From contig NC_091233.1 of NCBI RefSeq assembly GCF_040958095.1, forward strand, positions 22,886,943 to 22,950,942: a stretch of 64,000 bases of DNA, read 5' to 3'. Below, piece after piece: positions 6,152 through 52,793 of this stretch (position 1 is the stretch's first letter; each line of letters begins with the position of its first letter). Made by a program: the position numbers and the translations under genes. A model generated the notes under the pieces. That model saw only the letters and a list, made by a program, of their open reading frames with translations. It had not been told where the DNA came from and searched no databases. This DNA is from Procambarus clarkii. Its lineage: Eukaryota > Arthropoda > Malacostraca > Decapoda > Cambaridae.

Positions 6152-6244
<93 letters not shown>
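5684..6244. mobile_element. TIR element embedded in a (TA)n tract, copy 1
   Basis: The core spans 5,766-6,154 and begins GTCGTACCTAGTAGCCAGAA; the far end is its reverse complement. The TIRs continue through CACTTCTCAGCCTACTATGC and TTGCCTAATAAGCCAAG. The middle holds CCTAA/TTAGG-rich palindromic sequence and an AT-rich arm. (TA)n runs flank it at 5,684-5,765 and 6,155-6,244, so it sits inside a TA array or carries TA ends. No transposase ORF: a MITE-like, non-autonomous element. A second copy in opposite internal orientation is at 28,541-28,973. Confidence 0.85.
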
Positions 6245-6249
<5 letters not shown>

Positions 6250-6482
6250 GGCCACAAGCCTCTGGCTGGCCCACTAATCGTTACTCTTTCCTCGTCTTAC
6301 TTAGGATGAGCATTTATGTCTGGCATGTTGGCTTCCGTAAGATCATGTCCAATGTCTTTAACAACTTCTTCTGTGCTGTTCAATTTCAGTTGAAATCTTA
6401 TTTAATGCGTGACTCTGCACTGTGGTAGATAATGTTGAAGTGTCGGGAGTTTCTCCACAGTGGTGACACTGTGGGTCCTGTG

Positions 6483-8697: not shown

Positions 8698-8944
8698 TAG
8701 CCAAGATTGTCCATCAGGAAGTTGATTGGTTCAAGCCTTCTGTTGTTGAGGTCTGTATGCTGCGCGCATCACAATAGATGTGCTACGGTTGAAAATAGAT
8801 TGAAGAATAATTCCCCGATGAATATAGATGACATTAACAGGATGGGTTGGTACTGATTTATTAATGCAAATTGCCGACTTTCTGTTATTAATGTCGCCTG
8901 TCACCACGTGTTCATAAGATAATACTGTGAATGTTAACTATGTT

Positions 8945-9685
<741 letters not shown>

Positions 9686-12112: not shown

Positions 12113-12960
12113 GCTGTCATACATATCTCCAGGTGGTCATACATATCTCCCAGGTGATCATACATATCTCCCAGGTGATCATACATATCACCCAGGTGGT
12201 CATACATATCTCCCAGGTGATCATACATATCTCCCAGGTGGTCATACATATCTCCCAGGTGATCATGCATATCTCCCAGGTGGTCATACATATCTCCCAG
12301 GTGGTCATACATATCACCCAGGTGGTCATACATATCTCCCAGGTGATCATACATATCTCCCAGGTGATCATACATATCTCCCAGGTGATCATGCATATCT
12401 CCCAGGTGGTCATACATATCTCCCAGGTGGTCATACATATCTCCCAGGTGATCATACATATCACCCAGGTGCTCATACATATCTCCCAGGTGATCATACA
12501 TATCTCCCAGGTGATCATATATATCTCCCAGGTGGTCATACATATCTCCCAGGTGATCATACATATCACCCAGGTGCTCATACATATCTCCCAGGTGGTC
12601 ATACATATCTCCCAGGTGATCATACATATCTCCCAGGTGATCATATATATCTCCCAGGTGATCATACATATCTCCCAGGTGATCATACATATCTCCCAGG
12701 TGATCATACATATCTCCCAGGTGGTCATACATATCTCCCAGGTGGTCATACATATCTCCCAGGTGATCATACATATCTCCCAGGTGGTCATACATATCTC
12801 CCAGGTGATCATACATATCTCCCAGGTGATCATGCATATCTCCAGGTGATCATACATATCTCCAGGTGATCATACATATCTCCCAGGTGATCATGCGTAT
12901 CTCCCAGGTGATCATACATATCACCCAGGTGATCATACATATCTCCCAGGTGATCATACA
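12113..12960. repeat. 21-bp minisatellite upstream of gene B
   Basis: About 40 copies of CATACATATCTCCCAGGTGA plus T; it is unrelated to the CAGCTCCTTG 21-mer. It begins about 160 bp upstream of gene B's coding start, so it would lie in the 5'UTR intron. The multiple-of-three period produces false long ORFs on both strands. Confidence 0.95.
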
Positions 12961-22611: not shown

Positions 22612-23545
22612 GTGTCGGAGTGTCCCGTTGTTGGCCCTGATTGGCCGAGTGTCCCTCTGTTGGCCCTGATTGGCCGAGTGTCCCGTTGTTGGCCCTAACT
22701 GGCCGAGTGTTCCTCTGCTGGCCCTGACTGGCCGAGTGACCCTCTGCTGACCCTGACTGGCCGAGTGACCCTCTGCTGGCCCTGACTGGCCGAGTGTCCC
22801 TCTGCTGGCCCTAACTGGCCGAGTGTCCCTCGGCTGGCCCTGACTGGCCGAGTGTCCCTCTGCTGGCCCTGACTGACCGAGTGTCCCTCTGCTGGCCCTA
22901 ACTGGCCGAGTGTCCCTCGGCTGGCCCTGACTGACCGAGTGTCCCTCTGCTGGCCCTAACTGGCCGAGTGACCCTCTGCTGGCCCTGACTGGCCAAGTGT
23001 TCCTCTGCTGGCCCTGACTGGCCGAGTGACCCTCTGCTGGCCCTGACTGGCCAAGTGTTCCTCTGCTGGCCCTGACTGGCCGAGTGTTCCTCTGCTGGCC
23101 CTGACTGGCCGAGTGACCCTCTGCTGGCCCTGACTGGCCAAGTGTTCCTCTGCTGGCCCTAACTGGCCGAGTGTCCCTCTGCTGGCCCTAACTGGCCGAG
23201 TGTCCCTCGGCTGGCCCTGACTGACCGAGTGTCCCTCTGCTGGCCCTAACTGGCCGAGTGACCCTCTGCTGGCCCTGACTGGCCAAGTGTTCCTCTGCTG
23301 GCCCTGACTGGCCGAGTGACCCTCTGCTGGCCCTGACTGGCCAAGTGTTCCTCTGCTGGCCCTGACTGGCCGAGTGTCCCTCGGCTGGCCCTGACTGGCC
23401 AAGTGCTCCTCTGCTGGCACCGACTGACCGAGTGACCCTCTGCTGGCCCTGACTGGCCGAGTGACCCTCTGCTGGCCCTGACTGGCCGAGTGACCCTCTG
23501 CTGGCCCTGACTGGCCGTGTGACCCTCTGCTGGCCCTGACTGCCT
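22612..23545. repeat. 29-bp minisatellite
   Basis: About 32 copies of GGCCGAGTGTCCCTCTGCTG plus GCCCTGACT. GTGACCC and GTGTTCC variants alternate in blocks, suggesting multi-unit duplications. Confidence 0.95.
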
Positions 23546-24106: not shown

Positions 24107-25882
24107 TAATGAGTGCTCGTTGATGAGTGCTCGTTGATGAGTGCTCGTTGATGAGTGCCAGTTGATGAGTGCCAGTTGATGAGTGCCAGTTGATGATTGC
24201 TCGTTGATGAGTGCTCGTTGATGAGTGCTCGTTGATGAGTGCTCGTTGATGAGTGCTCGTTGATGAGTGCTCGTTGATGAGTGCTCGTTGATGAGTGCTC
24301 GTTGGTGAGTACTCGTTGATGAGTGCTCGTTGATGAGTGCTCGTTGGTGAGTACTCGTTGATGAGTGCTCGTTGATGAGTGCTCGTTGATGAGTGCTCGT
24401 TGATGAGTGCTCGTTGATGAGTGCTCGTTGATGAGTGCTCGTTGGTGAGTGCTCGTTGATGAGTGCTCGTTGATGAGTGCTCGTTGGTGAGTGCTCGTTG
24501 ATGAGTGCTCGTTGATGAGTGCTCGTTGGTGAGTGCTCGTTGATGAGTGCTCGTTGATGAGTGCTCGTTGATGAGTGCCAGTTGATGAGTGCTCGTTGAT
24601 GATTGCTCGTTGATGAGTGCTCGTTGATGAGTGCTCGTTGATGAGTGCTCGTTGATGAGTGCTCGTTGATGAGTGCTCGTTGATGAGTCCTTGTTGTTGA
24701 GTGCTCGTTGATGAGTGCTCGTTGATGAGTGCTCGTTGATGAGTGCTAGTTGATGAGTGCTCGTTGATGAGTGCTCGTTGGTGAGTGCTCGTTGATGAGT
24801 GCTCGTTAATGAGTGCTCGTTGATGAGTGCTCGTTGATGAGTGCCAGTTGATGAGTGCTCGTTGGTGAGTCCTTGTTGATGATTGCTCGTTGATGAGTAC
24901 TCGTTGATGATTGCTCGTTGATGAGTGCTCGTTGATGAGTGCCAGTTGATGAGTGCTCGTTGATGAGTGCTCGTTGAAGAGTGCTCGTTGGTGAGTGCTC
25001 GTTGATGAGTGCTCGTTGATGAGTGCTCGTTGATGAGTGCTCGTTGATGAGTGCCAGTTGATGAGTGCTCGTTGATGAGTGCTCGTTGATGAGTGCTCGT
25101 TGATGAGTGCTCGTTGGTGAGTGCTCGTTGATGAGTGCTCGTTGATGAGTGCTCGTTGATGAGTGCTCGTTGATGAGTGCTCGTTGATGAGTGCTCGTTG
25201 ATGAGTGCTCGTTGATGAGTGCCAGTTGATGAGTGCTCGTTGATGAGTGCTCGTTGATGAGTGCTCGTTGATGATTGCTCGTTGATGATTGCTCGTTGTT
25301 GAATGCCAGTTGATGAGTGCTAGTTGATGAGTACTCGTTGATGAGTCCTTGTTGATATGTGCTAGTTGATGAGTGCTCGTTGATGAGTCCTGGTTGATGA
25401 GTGCTAGTTGATGAGTTCTCGTTGATGAGTGCTCGTTGATGAGTGCTCGTTGATGAGTACTAGTTGATGGTTGCTCGTTGATGAGTCCTTGTTGATGAGT
25501 GCTCGTTGATGAATCCTTGTTGATGAGTGCTCGTTAATGAGTGCTAGTTGATGAGTGCTCGTTGATGAGTGCTCGTTGATGAGTGCTCGTTGATGAGTGC
25601 TCGTTGATGAGTGCTCGTTGATGAGTGCTCGTTGATGAGTGCTCGTTGATGATTGCTCGTTGATGAGTACTAGTTGATGATTGCTCGTTGATGAGTCCTT
25701 GTTGATGAGTGCTCGTTGATGATTGCTCGTTGATGAGTACTAGTTGATGATTGCTCGTTGATGAGTCCTTGTTGATGAGTGCTCGTTGATGAGTGCTCGT
25801 TGATGAGTACTAGTTGATGATTGCTCGTTGATGAGTCCTTGTTGATGAGTGCTCGTTGATGAGTGCTCGTTGATGAGTGCTC
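24107..25882. repeat. 14-bp minisatellite, 1.8 kb
   Basis: About 127 copies of GAGTGCTCGTTGAT. Variants (CCAGTTGAT, GATTGCTC, GTCCTTGTT, GTACTAGTT) cluster toward the right end, where a longer composite unit is repeated. Non-coding. Confidence 0.95.
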
Positions 25883-34243: not shown

Positions 34244-34424
34244 GAGGCTGGGTGAGCCTCCTTACTCATGACTTCCTCATGGGGAGGGGGGTGAGAGAGG
34301 GGGAGTGAGGGAGGTGAAGTGACTAAGAGAATCTATAATTCCCCTACCTTTCTTCCCTCTGTTATATCTTCCTTGTCTCCTCCTTCATCGATTCTCTCAT
34401 TCCTTTCGTGTTACCTAAATTTGT

Positions 34425-34655
34425 CGTTTAGAAATAATAGTTATAGAAAATTAATAGAATTATATAATAAAAATAATCGTTTAGAAATAATAGTTATAGA
34501 AAGTTAATAGAATTATATAATAAAAATAATCGTTTAGAAATAATAGAGTTATAGAAAGTTAATAAAGTTATATAATAAAAATAATCGTTTAGAAATAATA
34601 GTTATAGAAAGTTAATAGAGTTATATAATAGAAATAATCGTTTAGAAATAAGAGA
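34425..34655. repeat. About 60-bp AT-rich tandem repeats
   Basis: About four copies of a unit containing AATCGTTTAGAAATAATAGT and AGAAAGTTAATAGAATTATA, upstream of gene D's predicted start. Confidence 0.85.
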
Positions 34656-34659
34656 GTTT

Positions 34660-35263
34660 TCTAATGCTTTCATCAATTCGCCGTTTTCAAATTCAGCTCG
34701 GAAATTCATGGGTAAATATGGGCTTGGGAATATGGTAGTTGATTGTGAATCTATGGAGCGATTGTTTCAAGCGTAAGTTAGACATGTATGAATGAGTTTG
34801 GGGGGATTTAAATAGGAGCTGCCTCGTATGGACCAATACAGGTCTTCTGCAGTGTGTTTTATGGGTGTGAATCCTATACCACTTGTTGTATAATGTTCTA
34901 CAACACCCCTTATTGTATAATGACTCATACAGGTGTATAATAATGACTGGTATTAACATTATAATAGACTTAAGTGCAGCATAATATCTCATTAAAAATA
35001 ATCTCATATGTAAAATTTGCACTCAAGTATTCCTGAAAATTTTGATTGACATCAAATTTAAACAACAAATCGAATTAAAATAATCAATTCTTTCTGTATA
35101 CAAATGATTTTATAATAGTTACCGAGAGACTGTTCATCAATTACTTAATAATTGATTCTTCCCCTGTTCTTCTTCAGAGGCAATGTACAAGTTACTGGCT
35201 AGTCTCCAAGTCATCTGTAGACTACTGGCCAGTTTCTTGCCAGTTTGTAAGATGTCTTCAGAG
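34660..35263. other. Sequence between gene D promoter region and the giant element
   Basis: AT-rich with no recognised gene. The last six bases before the element, ACTGTT at 35,264-35,269, are repeated after its far end. Confidence 0.5.
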
Positions 35264-35269
35264 ACTGTT

Positions 35270-38200
35270 AGTAGTAGGGATGGCTCCACACAGGTACCTT
35301 TTTTTTCTGGGAGAAAAAAGGTACCTGTGCGCCCCAAGGGTTTCAGGTAAATTTAGAATATCCCCTGTGCGCCCCAAGGGTTTCAGGTAAATTTAGAAAA
35401 TCCCCTGTGCGCCCCAAGGGTTTTCAGGCGAATTTGGGGAGTCACAGATTTAGAATTAGGGAATTCTTATAATGAAAAATAATGTCATACGAGTTTGCTA
35501 AAGTTCTTATAAGAAAAATAATTTCCGAGACTTAGAAGTTTGTTAAGGCCTTATGGGAGAAATTCAAATAACATGTGTAGCACTTTAGGGCTTCCAGGAG
35601 AACTCTACGGACATATTTTACATGTTTTCAACTTACAAAATCGTCTATGTAAGCCTTAGTTATTCATATAAATTTAGAAAAGCACCTGTGTAAGTCATTG
35701 TTTTCAGGGTTTCGTACATCACACCCCCCTCCCTCTCCCCCTTACCTCGCAATCTGTCGCATCACCTTTATTTACTTTGCGCCCAGCCAGTCAGTCGGCT
35801 CTTAATCTTATCTTATCTTATCCATAATATCTGGACCGTCCCTCCTCTCTCTCTCTCTCTCTCTCCTTTCATTCAGTTCAACTATTTTCCAACATCGTAT
35901 GTTTGCTCCTTTTCATTAAGCAAGTCAGTATGTTTGCTCCTTTTCATTAAGCAAGTCAGTTTTACACAAATAAATCATGTTAGTAAGCAAGTTCTAGCTC
36001 ACGTTCCCCACCTTAGTCCCCTGTCGTATAAAGAATACTATCATTCCAATCCCTCTAAAATTTTTAAATAATCATATTTCAAATGTAGTTCAATACAGTA
36101 ATTAGTTACCAAGCTCCAGCTCTTGTCCTCCGCCTTAGCTCTCTCTCGTATCTTCGTTAGTATCAGTCCAATTTCCCTGAAATTTCTACCCTCTGTATTT
36201 CAGACATAGTTTAGTAAATGCAAACAATTATCAAACTCTAGCTCTTGTCCCCAGCTTAGTTCATTTGTACAAAATCATTAGTAACAGTCCAAATTTCCCT
36301 GAAATTTCTACCCTCTGTATTTCAGACATAGTTTAGTAAATGCAAACAATTATCAAACTCTAGCTCTTGTCCCCAGCTTAGTTCATTTGTACAAAATCAT
36401 TAGTAACAGTCCAAATTCCCTGAAATTTCTACCCTCTGTATTTCAGACACCGTAAATAAGATCAAAACAGTTACCAAGCTCCAGCTCTTGTCCTCCGCCT
36501 TAGCTCTCTCTCGTATCTTCGTTAGTAACAGATCAATTCCCCTGAAATTTCTACCCTCTGTATTTCAGACACCGTAAATAAAATCAAAATAGTTATCGAG
36601 CTCCAGCTCTCGTCCCCGCCTTAATTCTCTTTCGTATCTTTGTAAATAACCCATCAATTTCCCTAAAATTAAAAGCAGACATACTTCAAAGTTAGTAAAT
36701 AAGATCAAGTCAGTTACTGAGCTCCAGCTCTCGTCCCCGCCTTAGTTCTCTTTCATATCTTTGTAAATAAACCATCAATTTCCCTGAAATTTTTACCCTC
36801 TGTATTTCAGACATAGTTTAGTAAATGCAAACAATTATAAAACTCTAGCTCTTGTCCTCTGTCCAAGCTCACTTTTGTAAAATCATTACTCTCAGTCCAA
36901 ATCACCCAACTACATTTTCAGACATAGTAAATAAAAACCAGTTCAGTTATCAAGTTTCAACTCTTGTGCCCCAGCTTAGTTCTTTTGTACAAGTTCTTTA
37001 TTTTCCAACTAAATCACCCTGAGATTTAAGATCACCGTATTTCTAACGTAGTAAAATTAATCGGGGCATTAACCAAGCTCCATTTCCTCAGCCTTAGATC
37101 ATCAGACATAAATATATTCGATCAAGTCCCTCTCCAGCCTATCTGTTTATCAGAGTATTTACTTTACCCTTCTCATCCCCAACGTATCAATCCCCAACGT
37201 ATCAAAACCTTCAATAATCATACTGTATTTGCATATTTTTTCTATATTCAGCTGTGTTCTTCACATTTTGTCCATGTTTTCTATGTTCACTCCATGTTCT
37301 TCAAAATGTTCACAGTCCCATTCAGTTCATATTTTCACAAGTATCTCCATTTTTTATGTAATCTTTCTCTTAGTCTCATTATGTTCTCTACAAATTCTAG
37401 TCATATTTTCTATGTTTTCATATTCATCACATGTTCTCTTTACAACTTTTATACTCAATATTCATGCTAACTTCCATATTTTGTGTTCTTTGTCAATATT
37501 CATGTTCTCAATGTTCTTAGCTTGTTCTTCACATGTTCAGTGTTCATTCTTTGTATTCCCTATGTTCCTTATCATGTCTTCATATTCTCTATAAGTTCAT
37601 ATTCCCTGCATGTTCACTCTATTCATCAACTGTTTCTTACATGTTTTCTGTGTTCACCGTATGTTCACTGTGTTCATTCCCTTACTTAACCTCAATTTTT
37701 TATGTTCTTTGTTTCTTCCATTCACTAACTAGTTCTTTGTCAAATAATATTATACTGCATTACAGTTCCCTCAACAATTTTAGTCACCAAGTTTTATTTT
37801 CAAAACTATATCAAAGTAATTCTCGTTGTCAACTTAATAGTTCTACCAGCCATGTTCTTAAACAAATCTACACTTTATTCAGTTCCAAATTTACAAAAGA
37901 CAAACCTTTCTTGTAACTTCTTAACTAAAAATCTTTCGCCAATCAACTGAAACATAGTCACTTTCCTCATTTCTCAACTAACTTATTATCCAATCAACCA
38001 AAAAATTGTCAAAGGAATCTTTCCAACACTGTTCATAACTAAACCTATTATCCAGTCAACTAAAAATAGTCAGAAATAGCCTCGTTCAACACTGTTCTTA
38101 ACTAAAACAACCTTTCTCTTAGCTAAAAATTGTCAAAGGAAACTTTTTCAGCACTTTCTTAACAGGTGCTATGTTTCATCAAGAAAAAATGTCAAAGGAA

Positions 38201-41074
38201 ACTTTCCAAAACTGTTCATAACTAGCTTTTATCCATCGTCAATCAACTAAAAATAATAACTTTCATCATTTCTTAACTAAACATATTCCCCATTCATCAG
38301 AAAATAACCGTGTTCATCATGTTTCATTGTCATTTCTTAACTAAAATTATCTGCCAATCATCAGAAAAAGTCATGTTCATCATGTTTTGGCTTTTGCTCA
38401 ACTAAAAGTATTCATCGGGCAACTAAAAATAGTTACTTCATCATGTTTCCTTGTCATTTCTTAACTGAAATATCACTTCTCTCATCTGAAAATAGTCAGG
38501 ATTAACCTCATTCAACACCGTTCTTAACTAAAACAACCTTTCGCTTAGCTAAAAATTGTCAAAGGAATCTTTTCAGCAGTGTTCATAACTAACTTTATCC
38601 ATCGTCAAGTAAGAAAATATAGTCAAAGATATCTATCATCGTCGTTCTTAACTGACATTTATACTTTGTGGAGCACTAAAATAGTCAAATGTAACTTTTT
38701 CAACACTTTCGTAACTAAAATTATATGTCGCTAAGTAAGAAAAATAGTCAAAGGTGCTCTCCGTTACACCAAAGTTACTCTTCGAGAAATCAAAGACACT
38801 CTTCAATACATCAAGGACTTACTCAAAGACACCAAAGTTACACTCTAAGACATCCTTCGAGACATCAAAGACTTCAATGGGACTCTTCCATTCATCAAAG
38901 ACATTCTCTAAGCCCTCAAAGTTATTCTCAGCACAATCAAAAGTTATTCCAAGACAACAAAAAGTCATTCTCAGAGCTATCAAAATTATTCTCGGAGTCA
39001 TCAAAAGGTATTCTCTAACTCACTTTTGGTCATTAAAGTTAATTTCTATGTTATAAAAGTTGGTCTCAGAGACATCTAAAGTTAATCTTAGAGTTATCAA
39101 ATGTAATCTCTAACTCTCTTTTGTTCATCAAAGTTGATCTCAGAGTTAACAAAGGTAATCTCTAACTCACTCTCGTTCATCAAAGTTATTCAAAGAGCTA
39201 ACAAAAGTTATTCTCAGAGTCACCTTCGTTCTTCAGAGAAACTTTCCAAAACATCTTTATTCATCAAAGTTATTCTCAGAGGCATAAAAGTCATTCTCAG
39301 AGCTATCAAACTTGTTCTCAAAGTCATCAAACTTATTCACAGAGTCATCAAAGTTAATCTAAGACATCATTTTTCATCAAAGATATTCTCTCTAAGCCAT
39401 CAATGTTCTTCTCTAAGACATAAAAGTTATTCTCAGAGTCACCTTCGTTCGTCAGAGAAACTTTCAAAACATCTTTGTTCATCAAACTTGTTTTCAAAGT
39501 CATCAAAAGTTAATCTAAGACATCTTCTTTCATCAAAGTTATTTTCAGAGACATCTAAAGTTATTCTCAGAGCTATCAAACTTGTTCTCAGAGTCATCAA
39601 ATGTTATTCTCGAAGTCATCAAAGTTATTTTCAGAGACATCTAAAGTTAATTTCTATGTTATAAAGTTATTCTCAGAGACATCTAAAGTTAATCTTGGTC
39701 ATCAAAGTTATTTTCAGAGACATCTAAAGTTAATTTCTATGTTATAAAGTTATTCTCAGAGACATCTAAAGTTAATCTCAGAGTTATCCAAAGACATTCT
39801 CAAAGTCATCTAAAGTTATTCTCTAAGACATCAAAGTTATTCAAAGAGCTAACAAAAGTTATTCTCTAAGTAACCTTTCGTTCATCAGAGAAGCTTTCTA
39901 AGACATCTTCGTTCATCAATGTTGATCTCTAAGTCACTTTTGTTCATCAAAGAAACTCTCCTTCTTCCATCAAGTTATACGTTAAGACAACATTGTTGTT
40001 CTCTAAGACATCTTCAGGCATAAAATTTCTCCCCAAATGTAACTAGTTCAGCTTTTCATATCAAACTTACACTTCTGTTAAATATATTTTCTTAGACATT
40101 TTACCCTAAAACTGTTCTCTGAACTACACTGTTCAAACCTACGTAACCTATCCTCTCCACCCAATGTTACTTAGTTAACGTAACGTTCCTAAACCTAGCT
40201 TTACCTATCCTAACATACCTTACCTTACCTTCCCTATCTTACCTAACTTTACCTATCCTAACATAACTTACCTTACCTTCCCTAACTTAACCTAACTTTA
40301 CCTATCCTAACTTAACTTGCCTTTCATAACCTATCTTTACCTATCCTAACATAACTTACCTTACCTTCCCTATCTTACCTAACTTTACCTATCCTAACAT
40401 AACTTACCTTACCTTCCCTAACTTAACCTAACTTTACCTATCCTAACTTAACTTGCCTTTCATAACCTATCTCTACCTATCCTAACATAACTTACCTTAC
40501 CTTCCCTATCTTACCTAACTTTACCTATCCTAACATAACTTACCTTACCTTCCCTAACTTAACCTAACTTTACCTATCCTAACTTAACTTACCTAACTTA
40601 TTCTGCTTAACATAACTTACCTTACCTTACCTATCTTACCTAACTTTACATATCTTACCTAACTTTACCTATCCTATCCTAACCTAACTTGCTTTACCTA
40701 ACTTAATCTTACATTCCCAAACTGATGTATCCTAACTTATCTAGTCAAACCAGACATGATCTAACTTACATAAGTATTCCTTCTTGTCTTTTGTGTTTCG
40801 TCAATCATTGTCTCATATTCATTTACTCATTTCATTAGTTAATTTCTCAAATGGTCACTTATGCATTTCAAGTGCTATTTGTTAGAGATTGGATATTTAA
40901 GCATTTCAAAGAATTTTTGTTATATATGGGCATTTACTCATTTCAAGGGTTAATTTCTCAAATGGACGTTTTTGCATTTCAAGTGTTATTTGTTTAAGAT
41001 TGGGTATTTAACCATTTCAAAGGATTTTTGTTATATATGGGAACTTACTCGTTTCAAGGGCTAATTTCTCAAAT
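35270..41074 (+). repeat. Left arm of the giant element (5,805 bp)
   Basis: Built of successive blocks. There is a terminal hairpin with GGTACC (35,288-35,327), three 40-bp copies containing CCTGTGCGCCCCAAGGG (35,323-35,430) and AT-rich sequence. About eight 120-bp units with CCCTCTGTATTTCAGACA follow (36,030-37,030), then an ATGTTC-rich block (37,230-37,690) and degenerate units with AACTAAAAATAGTCAAAGG (37,900-38,720). Units with CATCAAAGTTATTCTCAGAG (38,750-39,980), TTACCTATCC/TAACTTACC units (40,140-40,740) and 110-bp units with GCATTTCAAGTG (40,830-41,074) complete it. C clearly exceeds G on this strand. Confidence 0.9.
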
Positions 41075-41723
41075 GGTCATTTTTGCAGATCAAGGGTTAT
41101 TTGTTAAAGTTCATCAAGTTGCCCATAAGTTGTATTTATTATGTTTGTTATCTTATGTTCATATTCCCCAACCCCTTAACCTAACCTCTTGTAATCTTAG
41201 TGTATTTAGTAGGTTCTATCTTATGTTCTTATTCCCCAACCCCTTAACCTAACCTTTCAGATGTAGTTTGTTGAATATATTATCCTTTTCCTAACCTTTC
41301 AGATGTAGTTTTGTTTCTCCTTTTTGTATATTTTTACCCAAACCCACCATCCCACTTATCCTTCTTTCCTTCTTTACTTTGTTTTCACATATAAGTTCAT
41401 TCTTTATCATAGTAATAATAAAAATTACAATAGTAAAGTCTCAGATCTACTGAGACTTGAAATTGAGAAACAAGAGCTCAAGGGAGTGAGAGCATGAAAG
41501 AAGAGCAAGGAGTAAGAGAGAGGGGGCGGAAGAAAATGTGACCAAAGAAGAGAGAATGAGAGAGAGTGTGGGCATGGGAGCACTAAGACTTGAATTGAGA
41601 AAAAGAAAAACTAAGTGAATGAGAATGAGAGTGTGAGAATGGGAGCAATAAGACTTGAATTGAGAAAAAGAAAAACTAAGTGAATGAGAATGAGGGTGTG
41701 AGAATGGGAGCAATAAGACTTGA
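41075..41723. other. Spacer of the giant element (649 bp)
   Basis: The only part not present twice. The left half continues the pyrimidine-rich style (CCCCAACCCCTTAACCTAAC repeats near 41,170-41,255). The right half is purine-rich with about three 65-bp copies of GGGAGCAATAAGACTTGAAT-type sequence (41,577-41,720). The switch of strand bias lies at about 41,405-41,440, next to a 7-bp-stem hairpin GTCTCAG...CTGAGAC (41,437-41,455). No gene recognised. Confidence 0.8.
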
Positions 41724-44700
41724 ATTTGAGAAATTAGCCCTTGAAACGAGTAAGTTCCCATATATAACAAAAATCCTTTGAAATGGTTAAATACCCAATC
41801 TTAAACAAATAACACTTGAAATGCAAAAACGTCCATTTGAGAAATTAACCCTTGAAATGAGTAAATGCCCATATATAACAAAAATTCTTTGAAATGCTTA
41901 AATATCCAATCTCTAACAAATAGCACTTGAAATGCATAAGTGACCATTTGAGAAATTAACTAATGAAATGAGTAAATGAATATGAGACAATGATTGACGA
42001 AACACAAAAGACAAGAAGGAATACTTATGTAAGTTAGATCATGTCTGGTTTGACTAGATAAGTTAGGATACATCAGTTTGGGAATGTAAGATTAAGTTAG
42101 GTAAAGCAAGTTAGGTTAGGATAGGATAGGTAAAGTTAGGTAAGATATGTAAAGTTAGGTAAGATAGGTAAGGTAAGGTAAGTTATGTTAAGCAGAATAA
42201 GTTAGGTAAGTTAAGTTAGGATAGGTAAAGTTAGGTTAAGTTAGGGAAGGTAAGGTAAGTTATGTTAGGATAGGTAAAGTTAGGTAAGATAGGGAAGGTA
42301 AGGTAAGTTATGTTAGGATAGGTAGAGATAGGTTATGAAAGGCAAGTTAAGTTAGGATAGGTAAAGTTAGGTTAAGTTAGGGAAGGTAAGGTAAGTTATG
42401 TTAGGATAGGTAAAGTTAGGTAAGATAGGGAAGGTAAGGTAAGTTATGTTAGGATAGGTAAAGATAGGTTATGAAAGGCAAGTTAAGTTAGGATAGGTAA
42501 AGTTAGGTTAAGTTAGGGAAGGTAAGGTAAGTTATGTTAGGATAGGTAAAGTTAGGTAAGATAGGGAAGGTAAGGTAAGGTATGTTAGGATAGGTAAAGC
42601 TAGGTTTAGGAACGTTACGTTAACTAAGTAACATTGGGTGGAGAGGATAGGTTACGTAGGTTTGAACAGTGTAGTTCAGAGAACAGTTTTAGGGTAAAAT
42701 GTCTAAGAAAATATATTTAACAGAAGTGTAAGTTTGATATGAAAAGCTGAACTAGTTACATTTGGGGAGAAATTTTATGCCTGAAGATGTCTTAGAGAAC
42801 AACAATGTTGTCTTAACGTATAACTTGATGGAAGAAGGAGAGTTTCTTTGATGAACAAAAGTGACTTAGAGATCAACATTGATGAACGAAGATGTCTTAG
42901 AAAGCTTCTCTGATGAACGAAAGGTTACTTAGAGAATAACTTTTGTTAGCTCTTTGAATAACTTTGATGTCTTAGAGAATAACTTTAGATGACTTTGAGA
43001 ATGTCTTTGGATAACTCTGAGATTAACTTTAGATGTCTCTGAGAATAACTTTATAACATAGAAATTAACTTTAGATGTCTCTGAAAATAACTTTGATGAC
43101 CAAGATTAACTTTAGATGTCTCTGAGAATAACTTTATAACATAGAAATTAACTTTAGATGTCTCTGAAAATAACTTTGATGACTTCGAGAATAACATTTG
43201 ATGACTCTGAGAACAAGTTTGATAGCTCTGAGAATAACTTTAGATGTCTCTGAAAATAACTTTGATGAAAGAAGATGTCTTAGATTAACTTTTGATGACT
43301 TTGAAAACAAGTTTGATGAACAAAGATGTTTTGAAAGTTTCTCTGACGAACGAAGGTGACTCTGAGAATAACTTTTATGTCTTAGAGAAGAACATTGATG
43401 GCTTAGAGAGAATATCTTTGATGAAAAATGATGTCTTAGATTAACTTTGATGACTCTGTGAATAAGTTTGATGACTTTGAGAACAAGTTTGATAGCTCTG
43501 AGAATGACTTTTATGCCTCTGAGAATAACTTTGATGAATAAAGATGTTTTGGAAAGTTTCTCTGAAGAACGAAGGTGACTCTGAGAATAACTTTTGTTAG
43601 CTCTTTGAATAACTTTGATGAACGAGAGTGAGTTAGAGATTACCTTTGTTAACTCTGAGATCAACTTTGATGAACAAAAGAGAGTTAGAGATTACATTTG
43701 ATAACTCTAAGATTAACTTTAGATGTCTCTGAGACCAACTTTTATAACATAGAAATTAACTTTAATGACCAAAAGTGAGTTAGAGAATACCTTTTGATGA
43801 CTCCGAGAATAATTTTGATAGCTCTGAGAATGACTTTTTGTTGTCTTGGAATAACTTTTGATTGTGCTGAGAATAACTTTGAGGGCTTAGAGAATGTCTT
43901 TGATGAATGGAAGAGTCCCATTGAAGTCTTTGATGTCTCGAAGGATGTCTTAGAGTGTAACTTTGGTGTCTTTGAGTAAGTCCTTGATGTATTGAAGAGT
44001 GTCTTTGATTTCTCGAAGAGTAACTTTGGTGTAACGGAGAGCACCTTTGACTATTTTTCTTACTTAGCGACATATAATTTTAGTTACGAAAGTGTTGAAA
44101 AAGTTACATTTGACTATTTTAGTGCTCCACAAAGTATAAATGTCAGTTAAGAACGACGATGATAGATATCTTTGACTATATTTTCTTACTTGACGATGGA
44201 TAAAGTTAGTTATGAACACTGCTGAAAAGATTCCTTTGACAATTTTTAGCTAAGCGAAAGGTTGTTTTAGTTAAGAACGGTGTTGAATGAGGTTAATCCT
44301 GACTATTTTCAGATGAGAGAAGTGATATTTCAGTTAAGAAATGACAAGGAAACATGATGAAGTAACTATTTTTAGTTGCCCGATGAATACTTTTAGTTGA
44401 GCAAAAGCCAAAACATGATGAACATGACTTTTTCTGATGATTGGCAGATAATTTTAGTTAAGAAATGACAATGAAACATGATGAACACGGTTATTTTCTG
44501 ATGAATGGGGAATATGTTTAGTTAAGAAATGATGAAAGTTATTATTTTTAGTTGATTGACGATGGATAAAAGCTAGTTATGAACAGTTTTGGAAAGTTTC
44601 CTTTGACATTTTTTCTTGATGAAACATAGCACCTGTTAAGAAAGTGCTGAAAAAGTTTCCTTTGACAATTTTTAGCTAAGAGAAAGGTTGTTTTAGTTAA

Positions 44701-47528
44701 GAACAGTGTTGAACGAGGCTATTTCTGACTATTTTTAGTTGACTGGATAATAGGTTTAGTTATGAACAGTGTTGGAAAGATTCCTTTGACAATTTTTTGG
44801 TTGATTGGATAATAAGTTAGTTGAGAAATGAGGAAAGTGACTATGTTTCAGTTGATTGGCGAAAGATTTTTAGTTAAGAAGTTACAAGAAAGGTTTGTCT
44901 TTTGTAAATTTGGAACTGAATAAAGTGTAGATTTGTTTAAGAACATGGCTGGTAGAACTATTAAGTTGACAACGAGAATTACTTTGATATAGTTTTGAAA
45001 ATAAAACTTGGTGACTAAAATTGTTGAGGGAACTGTAATGCAGTATAATATTATTTGACAAAGAACTAGTTAGTGAATGGAAGAAACAAAGAACATAAAA
45101 AATTGAGGTTAAGTAAGGGAATGAACACAGTGAACATACGGTGAACACAGAAAACATGTAAGAAACAGTTGATGAATAGAGTGAACATGCAGGGAATATG
45201 AACTTATAGAGAATATGAAGACATGATAAGGAACATAGGGAATACAAAGAATGAACACTGAACATGTGAAGAACAAGCTAAGAACATTGAGAACATGAAT
45301 ATTGACAAAGAACACAAAATATGGAAGTTAGCATGAATATTGAGTATAAAAGTTGTAAAGAGAACATGTGATGAATATGAAAACATAGAAAATATGACTA
45401 GAATTTGTAGAGAACATAATGAGACTAAGAGAAAGATTACATAAAAAATGGAGATACTTGTGAAAATATGAACTGAATGGGACTGTGAACATTTTGAAGA
45501 ACATGGAGTGAACATAGAAAACATGGACAAAATGTGAAGAACACAGCTGAATATAGAAAAAATATGCAAATACAGTATGATTATTGAAGGTTTTGATACG
45601 TTGGGGATTGATACGTTGGGGATGAGAAGGGTAAAGTAAATACTCTGATAAACAGATAGGCTGGAGAGGGACTTGATCGAATATATTTATGTCTGATGAT
45701 CTAAGGCTGAGGAAATGGAGCTTGGTTAATGCCCCGATTAATTTTACTACGTTAGAAATACGGTGATCTTAAATCTCAGGGTGATTTAGTTGGAAAATAA
45801 AGAACTTGTACAAAAGAACTAAGCTGGGGCACAAGAGTTGAAACTTGATAACTGAACTGGTTTTTATTTACTATGTCTGAAAATGTAGTTGGGTGATTTG
45901 GACTGAGAGTAATGATTTTACAAAAGTGAGCTTGGACAGAGGACAAGAGCTAGAGTTTTATAATTGTTTGCATTTACTAAACTATGTCTGAAATACAGAG
46001 GGTAAAAATTTCAGGGAAATTGATGGTTTATTTACAAAGATATGAAAGAGAACTAAGGCGGGGACGAGAGCTGGAGCTCAGTAACTGACTTGATCTTATT
46101 TACTAACTTTGAAGTATGTCTGCTTTTAATTTTAGGGAAATTGATGGGTTATTTACAAAGATACGAAAGAGAATTAAGGCGGGGACGAGAGCTGGAGCTC
46201 GATAACTATTTTGATTTTATTTACGGTGTCTGAAATACAGAGGGTAGAAATTTCAGGGGAATTGATCTGTTACTAACGAAGATACGAGAGAGAGCTAAGG
46301 CGGAGGACAAGAGCTGGAGCTTGGTAACTGTTTTGATCTTATTTACGGTGTCTGAAATACAGAGGGTAGAAATTTCAGGGAATTTGGACTGTTACTAATG
46401 ATTTTGTACAAATGAACTAAGCTGGGGACAAGAGCTAGAGTTTGATAATTGTTTGCATTTACTAAACTATGTCTGAAATACAGAGGGTAGAAATTTCAGG
46501 GAAATTTGGACTGTTACTAATGATTTTGTACAAATGAACTAAGCTGGGGACAAGAGCTAGAGTTTGATAATTGTTTGCATTTACTAAACTATGTCTGAAA
46601 TACAGAGGGTAGAAATTTCAGGGAAATTGGACTGATACTAACGAAGATACGAGAGAGAGCTAAGGCGGAGGACAAGAGCTGGAGCTTGGTAACTAATTAC
46701 TGTATTGAACTACATTTGAAATATGATTATTTAAAAATTTTAGAGGGATTGGAATGATAGTATTCTTTATACGACAGGGGACTAAGGTGGGGAACGTGAG
46801 CTAGAACTTGCTTACTAACATGATTTATTTGTGTAAAACTGACTTGCTTAATGAAAAGGAGCAAACATACTGACTTGCTTAATGAAAAGGAGCAAACATA
46901 CGATGTTGGAAAATAGTTGAACTGAATGAAAGGAGAGAGAGAGAGAGAGAGAGGAGGGACGGTCCAGATATTATGGATAAGATAAGATAAGATTAAGAGC
47001 CGACTGACTGGCTGGGCGCAAAGTAAATAAAGGTGATGCGACAGATTGCGAGGTAAGGGGGAGAGGGAGGGGGGTGTGATGTACGAAACCCTGAAAACAA
47101 TGACTTACACAGGTGCTTTTCTAAATTTATATGAATAACTAAGGCTTACATAGACGATTTTGTAAGTTGAAAACATGTAAAATATGTCCGTAGAGTTCTC
47201 CTGGAAGCCCTAAAGTGCTACACATGTTATTTGAATTTCTCCCATAAGGCCTTAACAAACTTCTAAGTCTCGGAAATTATTTTTCTTATAAGAACTTTAG
47301 CAAACTCGTATGACATTATTTTTCATTATAAGAATTCCCTAATTCTAAATCTGTGACTCCCCAAATTCGCCTGAAAACCCTTGGGGCGCACAGGGGATTT
47401 TCTAAATTTACCTGAAACCCTTGGGGCGCACAGGGGATATTCTAAATTTACCTGAAACCCTTGGGGCGCACAGGTACCTTTTTTCTCCCAGAAAAAAAAG
47501 GTACCTGTGTGGAGCCATCCCTACTACT
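41724..47528 (-). repeat. Right arm of the giant element (5,805 bp)
   Basis: Reverse complement of the left arm, block for block. Three pairs of 100-176-residue chance ORFs occur at mirrored coordinates with identical translations. Comparisons at the outer 150 bp, the 40.5-kb block and the inner edge found no mismatch. Confidence 0.9.
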
Positions 47529-47687
47529 ACTGTTCACCAGTTACCCGTCTGTGTGTGGTCACACACCCGCACCACCTGACCATTGTTGTTGGCTCGACCC
47601 CCTCTGTTGGTAAACCTGATCACTGGTCGTTCTCATTAGAGAGTCATGGCTGGGATCTCATTCTGATTCAGAGTGCTACGCCTATCT

Positions 47688-47765
47688 CCTCCTCCTGCTG
47701 CTGTAGGTGCTGCTGCTGCTGTTGCTGCTGTCGCTGCTGCTGCTGCTGCTGTTGCTGCCGCTGGA
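47688..47765. repeat. (CTG)n-type trinucleotide tract
   Basis: CTG/TGC repeats with interruptions. Confidence 0.9.
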
Positions 47766-47989
47766 AGTACATCCTACTACAGATACCAACTGATGTTTTA
47801 ATAATACTTAGTAAAACACATTAAAACAGTGTACAATATGAATTTGCGGTACTTTAAAAGTTAACATAGTTGCAGTTAGTGTCATAAAAAATACTTAAAG
47901 CCATTGATTGAGATAAACACTGAACATTTCCAATGATTTGAAAAATTAATAGAAGAGAAGTTGTCATTAAATTATATCATAAAAACTAG

Positions 47990-48118
47990 TAACGCTTTGC
48001 GTAATAGTGGCTTTAGGCATTGTAGGTACTAGCTTTATTTATAAATCCATCAAGGTTTGTATCTCACCTTGTATGTATGGACTTTACCTGAATAAACATT
48101 TGATTTGATTTGATTTGA
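47990..48118 (+). mobile_element. LINE 3'-end fragment
   Basis: AACGCTTTGCGTAATAGTGG, CTTTAGGCATTGTAGGTACT and an (ATTTG)n end. The same tail occurs at 60,463-60,602 and, on minus, at 54,800-54,945. Confidence 0.75.
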
Positions 48119-48134
48119 GTAGTTAGAGTTAAGA

Positions 48135-48312
48135 TGTAGGCAAGCTAGGCTAGGTGTTCCTGATACCTGATCAACCAGGCTGTGACTCATACGTCAGGCT
48201 GCGAACAGCCGCGTCCAACAGCCTGGTTGATCAGTCCAGCAACCAGCAGGCCTGGTCGACGACCGGGCCGCGGGGACGCTAAGCCCCGGAAGCACCTCAA
48301 GGTTAGGTTAGA
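48135..48312 (+). mobile_element. SINE/LINE tail fragment
   Basis: GATCAACCAGGCTGTGACTC through GGGCCGCGGGGACGCTAAGC, matching 200-312. Confidence 0.65.
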
Positions 48313-48414: not shown

Positions 48415-48660
48415 CGGAGCCGGTCGGCCGAGCGGACAGCACGCGGGACTTGTGATCCTGTGGTCCTGGGTTCGATCCCAGGCGCCGGCGAGAAACATTG
48501 GGCAGAGTTTCTTTCACCCTATGCCCCTGTTACCTAGCAGTAAATAGGTACCTGGGTGTTAGTCAGCTGTCACGGGCTGCTTCCTGGGGGTGGAGGCCTG
48601 GTCGAAGACCGGGCCGCGGGGACACTAAAGCCCCGAAATCATCTCAAGATAATCTCAAGA
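48415..48660 (+). mobile_element. SINE copy (same family as 31.3-31.8 kb pair)
   Basis: GAGCCGGTCGGCCGAGCGGA, B box GGGTTCGATCCC, TTACCTAGCAGTAAATAGGT and a tail CCCGAAATCATCTCAAGATA. Confidence 0.88.
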
Positions 48661-49850: not shown

Positions 49851-52793
49851 CTAAATAGATGAAGTTAGGTACTTTTTGGTTTTGCTTTTAAATAAGGCAA
49901 AAGTTTTACAGTTTTTCAATTCACTAGGGAGTGAGTTCCATAGACTAGGTCCCTTAATTTGCATAGAGTGTTTACACAGATTAAGTTTGACCCTGGGGAT
50001 ATCAAAGAGATATTTATTTCTGGTGTGGTGATAATGGGTCCTATTACATCTGTCCAGGGAGAGTTTCAGAGCATGGTTTGCATTTAAGAACAGGGTTTTG
50101 TAAATGTAGTTGACACAAGAGAATGTGTGGAGGGAGTTAATATTTAGCAAGTTTAGAGATTTAAACAAGGGAGCTGAGTGTTGTCTGAAAGCAGAGTTAG
50201 TTATTATTCTGATAGCAGATTTTTGCTGTGTGATGATGGGCTTAAGGTGGTTTGCAGTGGTAGACCCCCATGCACAGATACCATAATTAAGATAAGGGTA
50301 GATTAGTGCATAATATAGTGAGAGGAGAGCAGAGTTAGGAACATAATATCTGATTTTGGAGAGTATACCAACTGTCTTAGAGACTTTCTTAGTTATGTGT
50401 TGAATGTGGGTGCTGAAGTTGAGTCTCTTGTCTAGGAATAGGCCAAGAAACTTGCCATCATTTTTATTACTGATGTTAATGTTGTCTATCTGTAGCTGAA
50501 TTGCATTTGATGATTTGCTTCCAAATAAGATGTAGTAAGTCTTTTCGATGTTTAATGTTAGTTTGTTCGTTGACATCCATAAGTGGACTTTTTTTAATTC
50601 ATTATTCACAACATTATTTAGTGTATGTGGGTTGAGGTTTGAGTAGATAAGGGTAGTATCGTCAGCAAACAATATAGGTTTGAGAATATTAGAGACATTA
50701 GGCAGATCGTTTATATATATAAGAAATAGAAGAGGTCCTAAGATGCTGCCCTGTGGCACTCCAACGGTAATTGGTAGAGTGGAAGAAGTTGTATCATTGA
50801 TGGTTACATATTGGTGTCTGTCACTAAGATAGGATCGGATGTAGTCAAGGGCAAGGCCTCGGATTCCATAATGCTGGAGTTTAAGTAAGAGGTAGTTGTG
50901 ATTAACAGTATCAAAGGCTTTTCTTAGGTCAATGAAGAGTCCAATCGGAAACTCATTTTTGTCAAGGGCTGAGTAGATAATGTCAAGGAGACTAATGATT
51001 GCATCATTGGTACTCTTTTGGGACCGGAAGCCAAACTGGCAGGGGCTGAGTATGTCGAATTTTACGAGGTAGGAATAGAGCTGTTTGTAAATAATTTTTT
51101 CAAATATTTTTGATAGAATGGGTAGATTTGATATTGGTCTATAATTGTTTATGTCCGCCGGATTGCCTCCTTTATGGACTGGCGTTACTCTTGCTTTTTT
51201 GAGGATATCAGGGAAGGTGTGACACTCTATAGATTTGTTGAACAGTAGTGCTATGGGTGGGGCAAGGGCATGGGAGGCTCTCTTGTACACAATGGACGGA
51301 ATTTCACTGGTGTTCCCTGCCTTGGTTTTTAGAGAGTGTATGATGGACACAACATCTGCCGGGCTGATTGGTGAAAGGAGAAGAGAGTTTGGATAGCTGC
51401 CTGAGAGATATGTGTTAATATGTGTCTGAGTCTGTGGGATTTTACTGGCAAGATTAGCACCAACCGATGAAAAGAAACTATTAAATTCATTTGCCATTTC
51501 TAAATCAGTTGACGGTATATCCCCATCCTTGTAGAGTTTTATTTGGTTATGTGAGTGTTGTTTAGTTCCTAGGATACTAGAGATAGTTTTCCAAGTGTTT
51601 TTCATGTTGCCTTTTGCTTCATTGAATCTATTCACATAATATGCAAGTTTTGCCTTTCTTATGATACTGGTAAGCATTGATGAGTACCTTTTAGCTACTT
51701 CCTTTGAAACTAGGCCAATCCTAACTTTCTTTTCATATTCATGTTTCTTGTTGATTGAGTTGAGAATGCCACTTGTGAGCCATGGATTGTTTAATCTTTT
51801 GTCAGTTACTTGCTTTGTAAGAAGGGGACAATGAAGGTTGTAGAGGCTTAGAGTTTTGGAGAGGAAGAGGTTAGCTAATGAATTTATATCATGGGTATTA
51901 TTGAATTCAGAATCCCAGTTAATATTGTGAAGTGCCTCTGTAAGATTGTCTAAAGCTGATTCACTGTGTAGCCTAAATGAAAGTTTCTTGCTTTTTGGTG
52001 GTGTTATGTCCATGTTCGCTATGAGAAAGGTAGGATAGTGGTCAGTTGTTCTGTCGTAGATTATACCAGATACAAGGGGAGCTGTTATGTTTGTCCATAT
52101 GTGGTCCAAGGTAGTGGCTGATGTTTGAGTGACTCGGGTAGGTTTGGTGATAGTGGGGATTAGCATACAGGAGTTCATGCTGTTAAGGAAATAGTCAACT
52201 TGAGAGCAGTTTTGTTGACCCAGGTCAATATTAAAGTCTCCTCCCAGAATGATGTGGTTTTTGTTGAGATTGTTGTTTATAATAAGATTCCTTAGGTTGT
52301 CTGAGAAAGAAGCTATGTTAGTATTAGGAAATCTATAGATGGCTCCAATAGTCAAAGAGGATTTAAGGGATTTAATTGTAAACTGAGCAAAAGTATATTC
52401 ACAGTAGTCATCTCTGTCACTAATAACACTGTTGCAGATAAATGTATCTCTGTAATATATAGCTGTGCCACCACCTTTTTTATTAGGCCTACAGTTATGA
52501 ATGGCTTTATAACCAGCTAAGTTGTAGAGTTGGGTATAGTCTTTATTTAGCCAAGTTTCTGTTAAAATAATGAACGATAGGTTAGTACCTAGTGCTGTGA
52601 GTAGTGCATTTAAATCGTCAAAATGTTTACCAAGTGATCTAACATTTTGGTTGTAAACTGATAGACAGGTGCTATTTTGGAGTTTGTTTTTAGCCTGGTG
52701 TGCTGTGAAATACTTACAATAATGATGATCAATGTGCTGGTTGGTATAGATATGAGACAGAAGATTTTGATCAGGATCAATATCAGTGTGCAT
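49851..52793 (-). CDS. LINE ORF2: AP-type endonuclease and reverse transcriptase, uninterrupted
   Basis: An intact 980-residue frame. The N-terminal endonuclease (about 45-260) shows YNQNVRSL, ILTETWL, GGGTAIYYRD, LGGDFNIDL and TTLDHIWTN. The reverse transcriptase (about 530-780) shows NYRPISNLPILSKIFEK, FGFRSQKST, GLFIDLRKAFDTVNH, GVPQGSILGPLLFLIYINDL and FADDTTLI at about 709-716. The C-terminus has YLNYGICAWG and GPSLWNSLPSELK. These are the key catalytic motifs of target-primed retrotransposition. It is CR1/L2-superfamily-like; the clade is uncertain. No RNase H domain and no upstream ORF1 are visible. Open over its whole length, so it is probably a recent insertion. Confidence 0.92.
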   Translation of the reverse strand: MHTDIDPDQNLLSHIYTNQHIDHHYCKYFTAHQAKNKLQNSTCLSVYNQNVRSLGKHFDDLNALLTALGTNLSFIILTETWLNKDYTQLYNLAGYKAIHNCRPNKKGGGTAIYYRDTFICNSVISDRDDYCEYTFAQFTIKSLKSSLTIGAIYRFPNTNIASFSDNLRNLIINNNLNKNHIILGGDFNIDLGQQNCSQVDYFLNSMNSCMLIPTITKPTRVTQTSATTLDHIWTNITAPLVSGIIYDRTTDHYPTFLIANMDITPPKSKKLSFRLHSESALDNLTEALHNINWDSEFNNTHDINSLANLFLSKTLSLYNLHCPLLTKQVTDKRLNNPWLTSGILNSINKKHEYEKKVRIGLVSKEVAKRYSSMLTSIIRKAKLAYYVNRFNEAKGNMKNTWKTISSILGTKQHSHNQIKLYKDGDIPSTDLEMANEFNSFFSSVGANLASKIPQTQTHINTYLSGSYPNSLLLSPISPADVVSIIHSLKTKAGNTSEIPSIVYKRASHALAPPIALLFNKSIECHTFPDILKKARVTPVHKGGNPADINNYRPISNLPILSKIFEKIIYKQLYSYLVKFDILSPCQFGFRSQKSTNDAIISLLDIIYSALDKNEFPIGLFIDLRKAFDTVNHNYLLLKLQHYGIRGLALDYIRSYLSDRHQYVTINDTTSSTLPITVGVPQGSILGPLLFLIYINDLPNVSNILKPILFADDTTLIYSNLNPHTLNNVVNNELKKVHLWMSTNKLTLNIEKTYYILFGSKSSNAIQLQIDNINISNKNDGKFLGLFLDKRLNFSTHIQHITKKVSKTVGILSKIRYYVPNSALLSLYYALIYPYLNYGICAWGSTTANHLKPIITQQKSAIRIITNSAFRQHSAPLFKSLNLLNINSLHTFSCVNYIYKTLFLNANHALKLSLDRCNRTHYHHTRNKYLFDIPRVKLNLCKHSMQIKGPSLWNSLPSELKNCKTFALFKSKTKKYLTSSI

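What the first reader, a model, noticed from the sequence alone, without database searches (positions are those of the whole stretch)
35264..47534. A 12.26-kb element with 5.8-kb identical-looking inverted arms, AG...CT ends and a 6-bp target duplication
Arms 35,270-41,074 and 41,724-47,528 are reverse complements at a constant coordinate sum of 82,798, around a unique 649-bp spacer. Both ends read AGTAGTAGGGATGGCTCC in from the edge, and ACTGTT sits directly outside both. Six-bp duplications and 5'-AG ends are Polinton/Maverick hallmarks, but there is no polymerase, integrase, protease or capsid gene; nearly the whole element is TIR. This would be a new kind of non-autonomous, integrase-mobilised giant-TIR element, or a foldback transposon with 6-bp duplications.
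Basis: partly seen in the sequence, partly recalled or inferred. Interest (0 to 1): 0.95.

Follow-up and report, generated by a model that had tools for sequence, protein, structure and literature searches.

The report
Palindromic giant-repeat relatives of Polinton transposons
This is one copy of a large family of gene-less jumping DNA elements, each almost entirely two mirror-image 6-kb arms, that share their ends with virus-like Polinton transposons in the same genome and appear to be copied and inserted by the Polintons' enzymes.

Summary
It is a real insertion: a paralogous site on the same contig lacks the element and has one ACTGTT exactly at the junction. It is a family: a spacer 30-mer has 1,506 hits and an arm 35-mer 1,413 in the 4.03-Gb genome, so roughly 700-1,500 copies. 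All 31 end pairs examined (29 of them giant elements) have 6-bp duplications, two with one extra terminal triplet. PolB-bearing Polintons in the same genome share the ends and up to ~0.7 kb of terminal repeat, sometimes an identical 30-mer end; one examined has integrase and ATPase. So this is a non-autonomous Polinton derivative. In 11 copies 0-4 substitutions separate the arms over 5.2 kb, against 19-475 both-arm differences between copies; other copies' arms have drifted apart. The arms are therefore probably equalised around transposition, perhaps through a replication panhandle. Lengths resemble Polintons (mean 12.7 versus 13.3-13.4 kb), and targets are often tandem repeats. Trans-mobilisation and packaging are inferred.

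The parts
35264..35269 (.). target site duplication ACTGTT, left
   Evidence: single ACTGTT at the paralogous empty site
35270..41074 (+). left arm (terminal inverted repeat), 5,805 bp
   Evidence: 0 mismatches to the right arm
35270..35279 (+). terminus AGTAGTAGGG, (AGT)2-type Polinton end
   Evidence: (AGT)2//(ACT)2 is the commonest vertebrate Maverick end (PMC8097293 section 7)
35270..35974 (+). part of the arm homologous to the terminal repeat of a Polinton in the same genome (element 1-117 at 68%, 235-601 at 90%, 664-705 at 86%)
35324..35435 (+). 40-bp subterminal tandem repeat; 1-6 units per arm among 11 copies, same number in both arms in 10 of 11
36106..36857 (+). 121-bp tandem repeat inside the arm
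38053..38087 (+). arm 35-mer used for the genome count (1,413 hits with up to 2 mismatches, control 0); mirror copy at 44711-44745
39530..39842 (+). 21/43/83-bp tandem repeat inside the arm
40192..40700 (+). degenerate AACCT-type / 136-bp tandem repeat inside the arm
41075..41723 (.). central spacer; its outer parts are inner-arm sequence unpaired in this copy, its core is single-copy per element
41384..41413 (+). spacer 30-mer used for the genome count (1,506 hits with up to 2 mismatches, control 0)
41724..47528 (-). right arm, perfect reverse complement of the left
46824..47528 (-). mirror copy of the Polinton-homologous outer arm
47519..47528 (-). terminus CCCTACTACT
47529..47534 (.). target site duplication ACTGTT, right

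Best explanation
A non-autonomous derivative of a Polinton/Maverick. It keeps Polinton ends (presumed replication origins and integrase sites) but no recognisable genes, and its terminal repeats have grown to about 6 kb so that the element is nearly a palindrome. Shown: a real insertion with 6-bp duplication; a family of hundreds of copies or more; ends and terminal repeat shared with PolB-bearing Polintons of the same genome; in 11 young copies the two arms are near identical although the copies differ; arms of other copies have diverged. Inferred: the Polinton integrase inserts it; the Polinton protein-primed PolB copies it from the ends, with jumping back on the AGT triplets; the displaced single strand folds into a panhandle of its two arms, and copying or repair on that duplex makes both arms one sequence in each round, so that a change or a newly acquired end on one arm passes to the other. 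Least certain: that its Polinton-like length reflects packaging in Polinton particles.
For: Insertion: 6-bp duplications in 31 of 31 end pairs, 29 of them giant elements; exact paralogous empty site; for the C4 copy 40 of 40 scored repeat copies run across the rejoined junction; rejoined flanks restore tandem arrays in 8 of 11 and 13 of 20. Family: spacer 30-mer 746+760 hits, arm 35-mer 709+704, controls 0; the first 100 listed arm hits, all exact matches, form 47 inward-facing pairs and 6 singles by hand count; spacer-core runs 6101-6154 and 6218-6253 occur once, arm runs such as 207-284, 441-592 and 3911-3970 twice, in 11 of 11 elements. Polinton link: a 13,337-bp end pair on C4 encloses a PolB match, has a ~960-bp terminal repeat homologous to the arm's first ~0.7 kb, an rve integrase with chromodomain and an A32-like ATPase; of 19 left ends taken beside PolB matches (19 of the 95 listed) 15 read AGTAGTAGGG and 17 are homologous to the arm; an identical 30-mer ends Polintons and giants. 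Arm equalisation: (0-4 within-copy substitutions per 5.2 kb; 19-475 differences fixed in both arms; in 55 copy pairs no site where A arms agree and B arms agree but A differs from B); 10 of 11 arm pairs sister; repeat numbers largely matched; a Polinton-type ~371-bp end at both ends of the C74 copy. Triplet gain.
Against: No experiment shows mobilisation in trans, replication by PolB, or particles. The inner arm (about 0.75-6.3 kb) and spacer have no identified source; they match none of the three Polinton pieces examined (the PolB stretch was not fetched). The arm 35-mer count (1,413) is not twice the spacer count (1,506) as intact elements would give: either the 35-mer is less conserved or many spacers sit in broken elements, so copy number is uncertain. 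The ten added copies were good matches to the first 1 kb of the arm, hence young and similar by selection. Over the whole arms, beyond the 5.2 kb, BLAST identity falls to 99.0% in C307, 99.5% in C4 and 99.6% in C43, and a 136-bp or 111-bp inner repeat differs in number between arms in C307, C43 and C84. C4's arms are not sister and its end repeats differ, 4 versus 6. That the diverged copies are older was not measured independently of their arms. Similar length may be shared ancestry. The extra triplets could be ordinary slippage. 26 of the first 100 listed ends had no partner matching the pattern.
Confidence: 0.82

Rival explanations
1. The element is a Polinton derivative, but the arms are kept identical by ordinary arm-to-arm gene conversion in the chromosome, as in large palindromes, not during transposition.
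For: Near-identical arms in the 11 young copies would also be seen if conversion were continuous; young copies alone cannot tell the two apart.
Against: In the position-based sample, the 18 giants have 0 substitutions between arm ends over about 690 bp in 7, 1-6 in 6 and 12-44 in 5 (C2_21.6, with 44, aligns poorly over 441 bp). Two copies read in full have arms at 91-95% (C3_34.9) and at 99.3% over 4.2 kb with 96.4-96.7% over the outer 1.2 kb (C2_51.5), the differences spread along most of the length. The duplicated insertion C1_9.09/C1_9.91 keeps its 2-3 left/right differences in both duplicates (weak, the duplicates are nearly identical).
Confidence: 0.15
2. A foldback transposon of another DDE superfamily (Mutator, P/Galileo or similar) that resembles Polintons by convergence of its ends.
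For: Long terminal repeats with internal tandem repeats and a small non-coding middle are the foldback plan (PMC4079207 passages).
Against: 6-bp duplications in 31 of 31 end pairs against 8-10 bp reported for Tetris; homologous terminal repeats, up to an identical 30-mer end, with PolB-bearing Polintons of the same genome.
Confidence: 0.03
3. Assembly artefact: a false inverted duplication.
For: A perfect 5.8-kb inverted repeat is a known signature of fold-back misassembly (recalled); raw reads were not available.
Against: The two outer flanks are different sequences and rejoin exactly in a paralogous locus without the element; the same plan recurs with different duplications in 29 giant elements, two of them a duplicated insertion.
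Confidence: 0.01

Closest known systems
Polinton/Maverick self-synthesising transposons (polintoviruses)
   Same: (AGT)2//(ACT)2 ends, 6-bp duplications, terminal inverted repeats, similar total length; shares terminal-repeat sequence with Polintons of its own genome
   Different: No PolB, integrase, ATPase, protease or capsid gene found; arms of 5.4-6.6 kb against 46-1,447 bp (mean 402) in intact vertebrate Mavericks (PMC8097293 section 7) and about 960 bp in the Polinton examined here
Foldback elements (FB, Galileo, Tetris)
   Same: Giant terminal repeats with internal tandem repeats, short non-coding middle, often no genes
   Different: Other transposase superfamilies and duplication lengths (Tetris 8-10 bp, PMC4079207 passages); here Polinton ends and 6 bp
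Snapback defective genomes of DNA viruses (e.g. AAV snapback genomes)
   Same: A replication-competent end plus self-complementary body, replicated with a helper's functions (PMC8235507 passages)
   Different: Those are subgenomic by-products of infection with the AAV type of end (recalled); here an integrated, inherited family with two Polinton ends; no particle shown

Membership tests
Polinton/Maverick | 6-bp target site duplication | tested here: met
   31 of 31 end pairs, 2 of them with one extra terminal triplet; empty site
Polinton/Maverick | 5'-AG end, commonly (AGT)2//(ACT)2 | tested here: met
   window and ten copies not chosen by end pattern; motif from PMC8097293 section 7
Polinton/Maverick | terminal inverted repeat homologous to that of gene-bearing Polintons | tested here: met
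Polinton/Maverick | encodes PolB, integrase, ATPase, protease, capsid proteins | tested here: not met
   No Pfam match in 3 arm ORFs; nine Polinton ORFs find nothing in 11 elements by tblastn (PolB itself not in that query). Hence a non-autonomous derivative, not a Polinton proper
Polinton/Maverick | protein-primed replication | not testable with these tools
   only indirect: variable terminal AGT number in 2 of 31 end pairs
[quoted passage not shown]
Mutator-type foldback elements | 8-10 bp target site duplication | tested here: not met
   6 bp in all 31 end pairs examined; 8-10 bp is the figure for Tetris in PMC4079207 passages
MITE | short (under about 1 kb) derivative of a DNA transposon (recalled) | tested here: not met
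   34 of 37 listed end pairs, one of them the C4 Polinton, span 11.7-14.2 kb; the other three 7.4-9.9 kb
Defective-interfering or satellite genome of a polintovirus | packaged in the helper's particles and interferes with it | not testable with these tools
   length similarity only

The most novel reading that the evidence does not exclude
A heritable palindromic satellite of a polintovirus: a gene-less, almost wholly self-complementary genome that has parasitised a Polinton's protein-primed polymerase, integrase and possibly capsid for long enough to reach many hundreds of integrated copies, is held near the helper's genome length by packaging, swaps ends with its helper, and rewrites both arms as one sequence in each replication round.
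Probability: 0.35. Interest if true: 0.92.

Novelty: new variant of a known kind. Interest (0 to 1): 0.78.

Why it matters
Maverick particles have not been observed (PMC8097293 abstract, seen in the listing), and whether Polintons still replicate is open. A dependent element with many hundreds of copies, some with identical arms, would be evidence of recent Polinton-type activity and gives a natural read-out of its replication: both-arm changes, swapped ends and triplet gains would be marks left by each round. Arm divergence could date each insertion, as LTR divergence does for retrotransposons. The open-paper searches made here (only listed titles and abstract openings and a few passages seen) showed no giant-repeat or non-autonomous Polinton family.

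Tried and rejected
Considered and dropped: assembly artefact (empty site, many independent copies); foldback of another superfamily (duplication length, Polinton ends); chromosomal gene conversion as the main equaliser (arms of other copies have diverged); Ginger-type integrase element (4-5 bp duplications and TGTNR ends, PMC2836005 passages); hidden genes in the arms; structured RNA in the window (no Rfam match at the gathering thresholds). The regularly spaced copies on C873 looked like a special array, but the examined ends of the three have the same flanks and the duplication CACATA, i.e. one insertion present with its flanks three times, about 22 kb per unit. A 2:1 ratio of arm to spacer hits was expected and not found (1,413 to 1,506).
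Full report
Observation. Searches confirm the coordinates: 5,805-bp arms without a mismatch, a 649-bp centre, (AGT)2-type ends and ACTGTT on both sides. The genome is 4.03 Gb in 2,308 contigs, and the window lies at C84:22886943-22950942.

It is an inserted element. Rejoining the window's flanks with one ACTGTT gives a 340-bp sequence that matches one other place over its whole length (C84:17175598-17175926, minus strand, 96%). The fetched paralogue is 97.5% identical over 921 bp of the left flank, 91.0% over the 233 bp next to the junction on the right (where a CTG-type repeat differs) and 97.6% over 586 bp further right; it reads through the junction with a single ACTGTT and no element end. 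For the copy at C4:40.06 Mb the rejoined flank is a dispersed repeat: 40 of 40 scored places run across the junction; a 41st listed row is a short weak match that does not.

It is a family. A spacer 30-mer has 746 forward and 760 reverse hits with up to 2 mismatches, an arm 35-mer 709 and 704; the reversed-pattern controls have none. Of the first 100 arm hits listed, all exact matches on C1-C5, 94 form 47 inward-facing pairs and 6 stand alone (my count from the listing). Intact elements would give two arm hits per spacer; the totals are about equal, so the 35-mer is less conserved or many spacers lie in broken elements. I therefore put the family at roughly 700-1,500 copies, about 9-19 Mb or 0.2-0.5% of the genome if full length (estimate). 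The end pattern AGTAGTAGGGNNGGCNNCNCACAG has 322 and 297 hits, control 0. Of its first 100, 74 form 37 inward pairs and 26 do not pair; 34 of the 37 pairs, including the C4 Polinton, span 11.7-14.2 kb, mean 12.7, SD 0.6 kb; the other three span 7.4-9.9 kb.

Copies. Set 1: the window plus ten copies chosen among the good matches to the first 1 kb: total 12.3-13.8 kb, arms 5.4-6.6 kb, a 6-bp duplication in 11 of 11, one of them (C4) after an extra ACT. Over whole arms the within-copy BLAST identity is 99.0-100%. Set 2: the first 20 inward pairs by position on C1-C3, chosen by end pattern only: 19 of 20 directly abutting 6-bp duplications, the twentieth after one extra AGT; two of the 20 share flanks and count as one event. 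The centres of 18 of these 20 match giant elements (one of them an 8.3-kb variant); of the other two, C3_41.5 has a PolB fragment (PF03175, 6e-7) and C3_35.5 a 233-aa open frame without a Pfam match above cut-off. So 29 of the 31 end pairs are giants.

Polinton link. PF03175 gives 95 listed matches, many in open frames of about 1,250-1,300 aa. One lies inside an end pair 13,337 bp apart on C4. Its ends, read as separate pieces, have a terminal repeat of about 960 bp (97% left/right). It matches the giant arms at the terminus (65-77%), in a block of about 380 bp (about 90% in most copies, at 235-601 of the window element) and at a short stretch further in. A separate piece encodes an rve integrase with chromodomain and a Pox_A32-type ATPase; a C48-like protease match is below its cut-off. 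The target duplication of this Polinton is a shared 7-mer, GGCGTAA, i.e. not exactly 6 bp. Of 19 left ends fetched beside PolB matches (19 of the 95), 15 have AGTAGTAGGG and 17 match the arm; 2 match nothing. The identical 30-mer AGTAGTAGGGTTGGCGCCACACAGACGAAT (15 forward and 16 reverse hits) ends pairs around PolB matches on C307 (13,408 bp) and C16 (13,360 bp), and the giants on C1:39.36 Mb and C74.

The arms evolve as one. I oriented arms by the spacer and compared the outer 5.2 kb in set 1. The two arms of a copy (C22, C307, C36, C4, C43, C50, C68, C70, C74, C8, C84) differ by 0, 2, 0, 4, 2, 1, 0, 0, 1, 0, 0 substitutions (10 in all; indels 0-2, but 10 in C4), while pairs of copies differ by 19-475 sites fixed in both arms. 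No site shows A arms agreeing across copies and B arms agreeing but A differing from B (55 pairs). Ten of 11 arm pairs are sister in a maximum-likelihood tree; C4's arms are neighbours but not sister. Subterminal 40-bp repeats number 1-6 per arm and agree between arms in 10 of 11 copies (C4: 4 and 6); two inner repeats agree in 11 of 11; the 136-bp repeat disagrees in C307, and the innermost 111-bp repeat in C43, C84 and C307. Copy C74 carries at both ends a stretch of about 371 bp that is 98.4% like Polinton ends on C16, C40 and C57, followed by ordinary giant arm: an end exchanged with a Polinton-like partner and present on both arms.

When are they equalised? Over about 690 bp at the ends, the 18 giants of set 2 have 0 substitutions between arms in 7, 1-6 in 6 and 12-44 in 5; the other two pairs have 8 and 19 (the worst, C2_21.6, aligns poorly and may have one altered end). 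Two copies read in full have arms at 91-95% (C3_34.9) and at 99.3% over 4.2 kb with 96.4-96.7% in the outer 1.2 kb (C2_51.5), the differences spread over much of their length. The simplest reading is that arms diverge after insertion and that equalisation belongs to the mobile phase; the age of these copies was not measured independently. Protein-primed strand displacement offers a direct route: the displaced strand pairs its two ends, here for 6 kb. This step is inference. An extra terminal triplet on one end (2 of 31) fits the jumping-back start that the end repeats are thought to serve in Mavericks (PMC8097293 discussion passage; sliding back in phages, PMC3480470 passages), though slippage would also do.

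Targets. With flanks rejoined, a tandem array spans the junction in 8 of 11 (500-bp flanks) and 13 of 20 (about 77-bp flanks; one of the 13 is the PolB-bearing C3_41.5), against 20% and 22% of 1,500 random window positions outside the element (binomial p 3e-4 and 4e-5; 13 of 19 without the duplicate, 2e-5). The background is from this one window only. The C4 Polinton also lies in a repeated flank. A chromodomain on the integrase makes chromatin targeting plausible (inference).

Novelty. In the open library, 'non-autonomous Polinton/Maverick' and similar phrases give three papers, each holding only 'Polinton-derived' (passages of one seen). Related searches listed 25 of 44, 3 of 3, 12 of 12, 15 of 100 and 12 of 151 papers, and none of the listed titles or abstract openings describes such elements. 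Subscription papers and Repbase were not searched. I file it as a new variant of a known kind: a non-autonomous Polinton derivative with a foldback or palindromic plan.

Noticed in passing
flanks of 31 end pairs (loci L009-L071 and the window): Insertions favour mini- and microsatellite arrays: 21 of 31 rejoined junctions are spanned by a tandem array, against 20-22% of random positions in this window.
   Followed up: partly
G000:C873:5923-62639 (L115-L120): One giant-element insertion (duplication CACATA) present three times with the same flanks at about 22-kb spacing: amplified segment or assembly duplication.
   Followed up: partly
G000:C1:9093390-9105803 and C1:9914137-9926556: Two insertions 0.8 Mb apart with the same 40 bp of flank printed on each side and the same duplication: apparently a segmental duplication carrying the element.
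   Followed up: partly
window 49851-52793 (-): 980-aa intact open frame with endonuclease and reverse transcriptase domains (PF03372, PF00078): probably a non-LTR retrotransposon ORF.
   Followed up: no
window 2194-3608, 4573-5190, 6700-7581, 8944-9681, 12117-12960, 22618-23542, 24109-25882: The window holds many long minisatellite arrays; not compared with the rest of the genome.
   Followed up: no
window 34352-35269 and 47529-48271; G000:C84:17174800-17176700 (L121): The insertion lies in one copy of a segmental duplication (about 97.5% identical on most of the flanks); the CTG-rich repeat near 47695-47763 has many more matching stretches in the empty paralogue.
   Followed up: no
G000, PF03175 listing: At least two groups of PolB-bearing elements by score and open-frame length (about 1,253 aa and about 1,298 aa); only the second was sampled for ends.
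   Followed up: no
window 48419-48490 (+): ARAGORN calls a tRNA-Thr(tgt) just right of the element; not tested whether it is a gene or tRNA-derived repeat.
   Followed up: no
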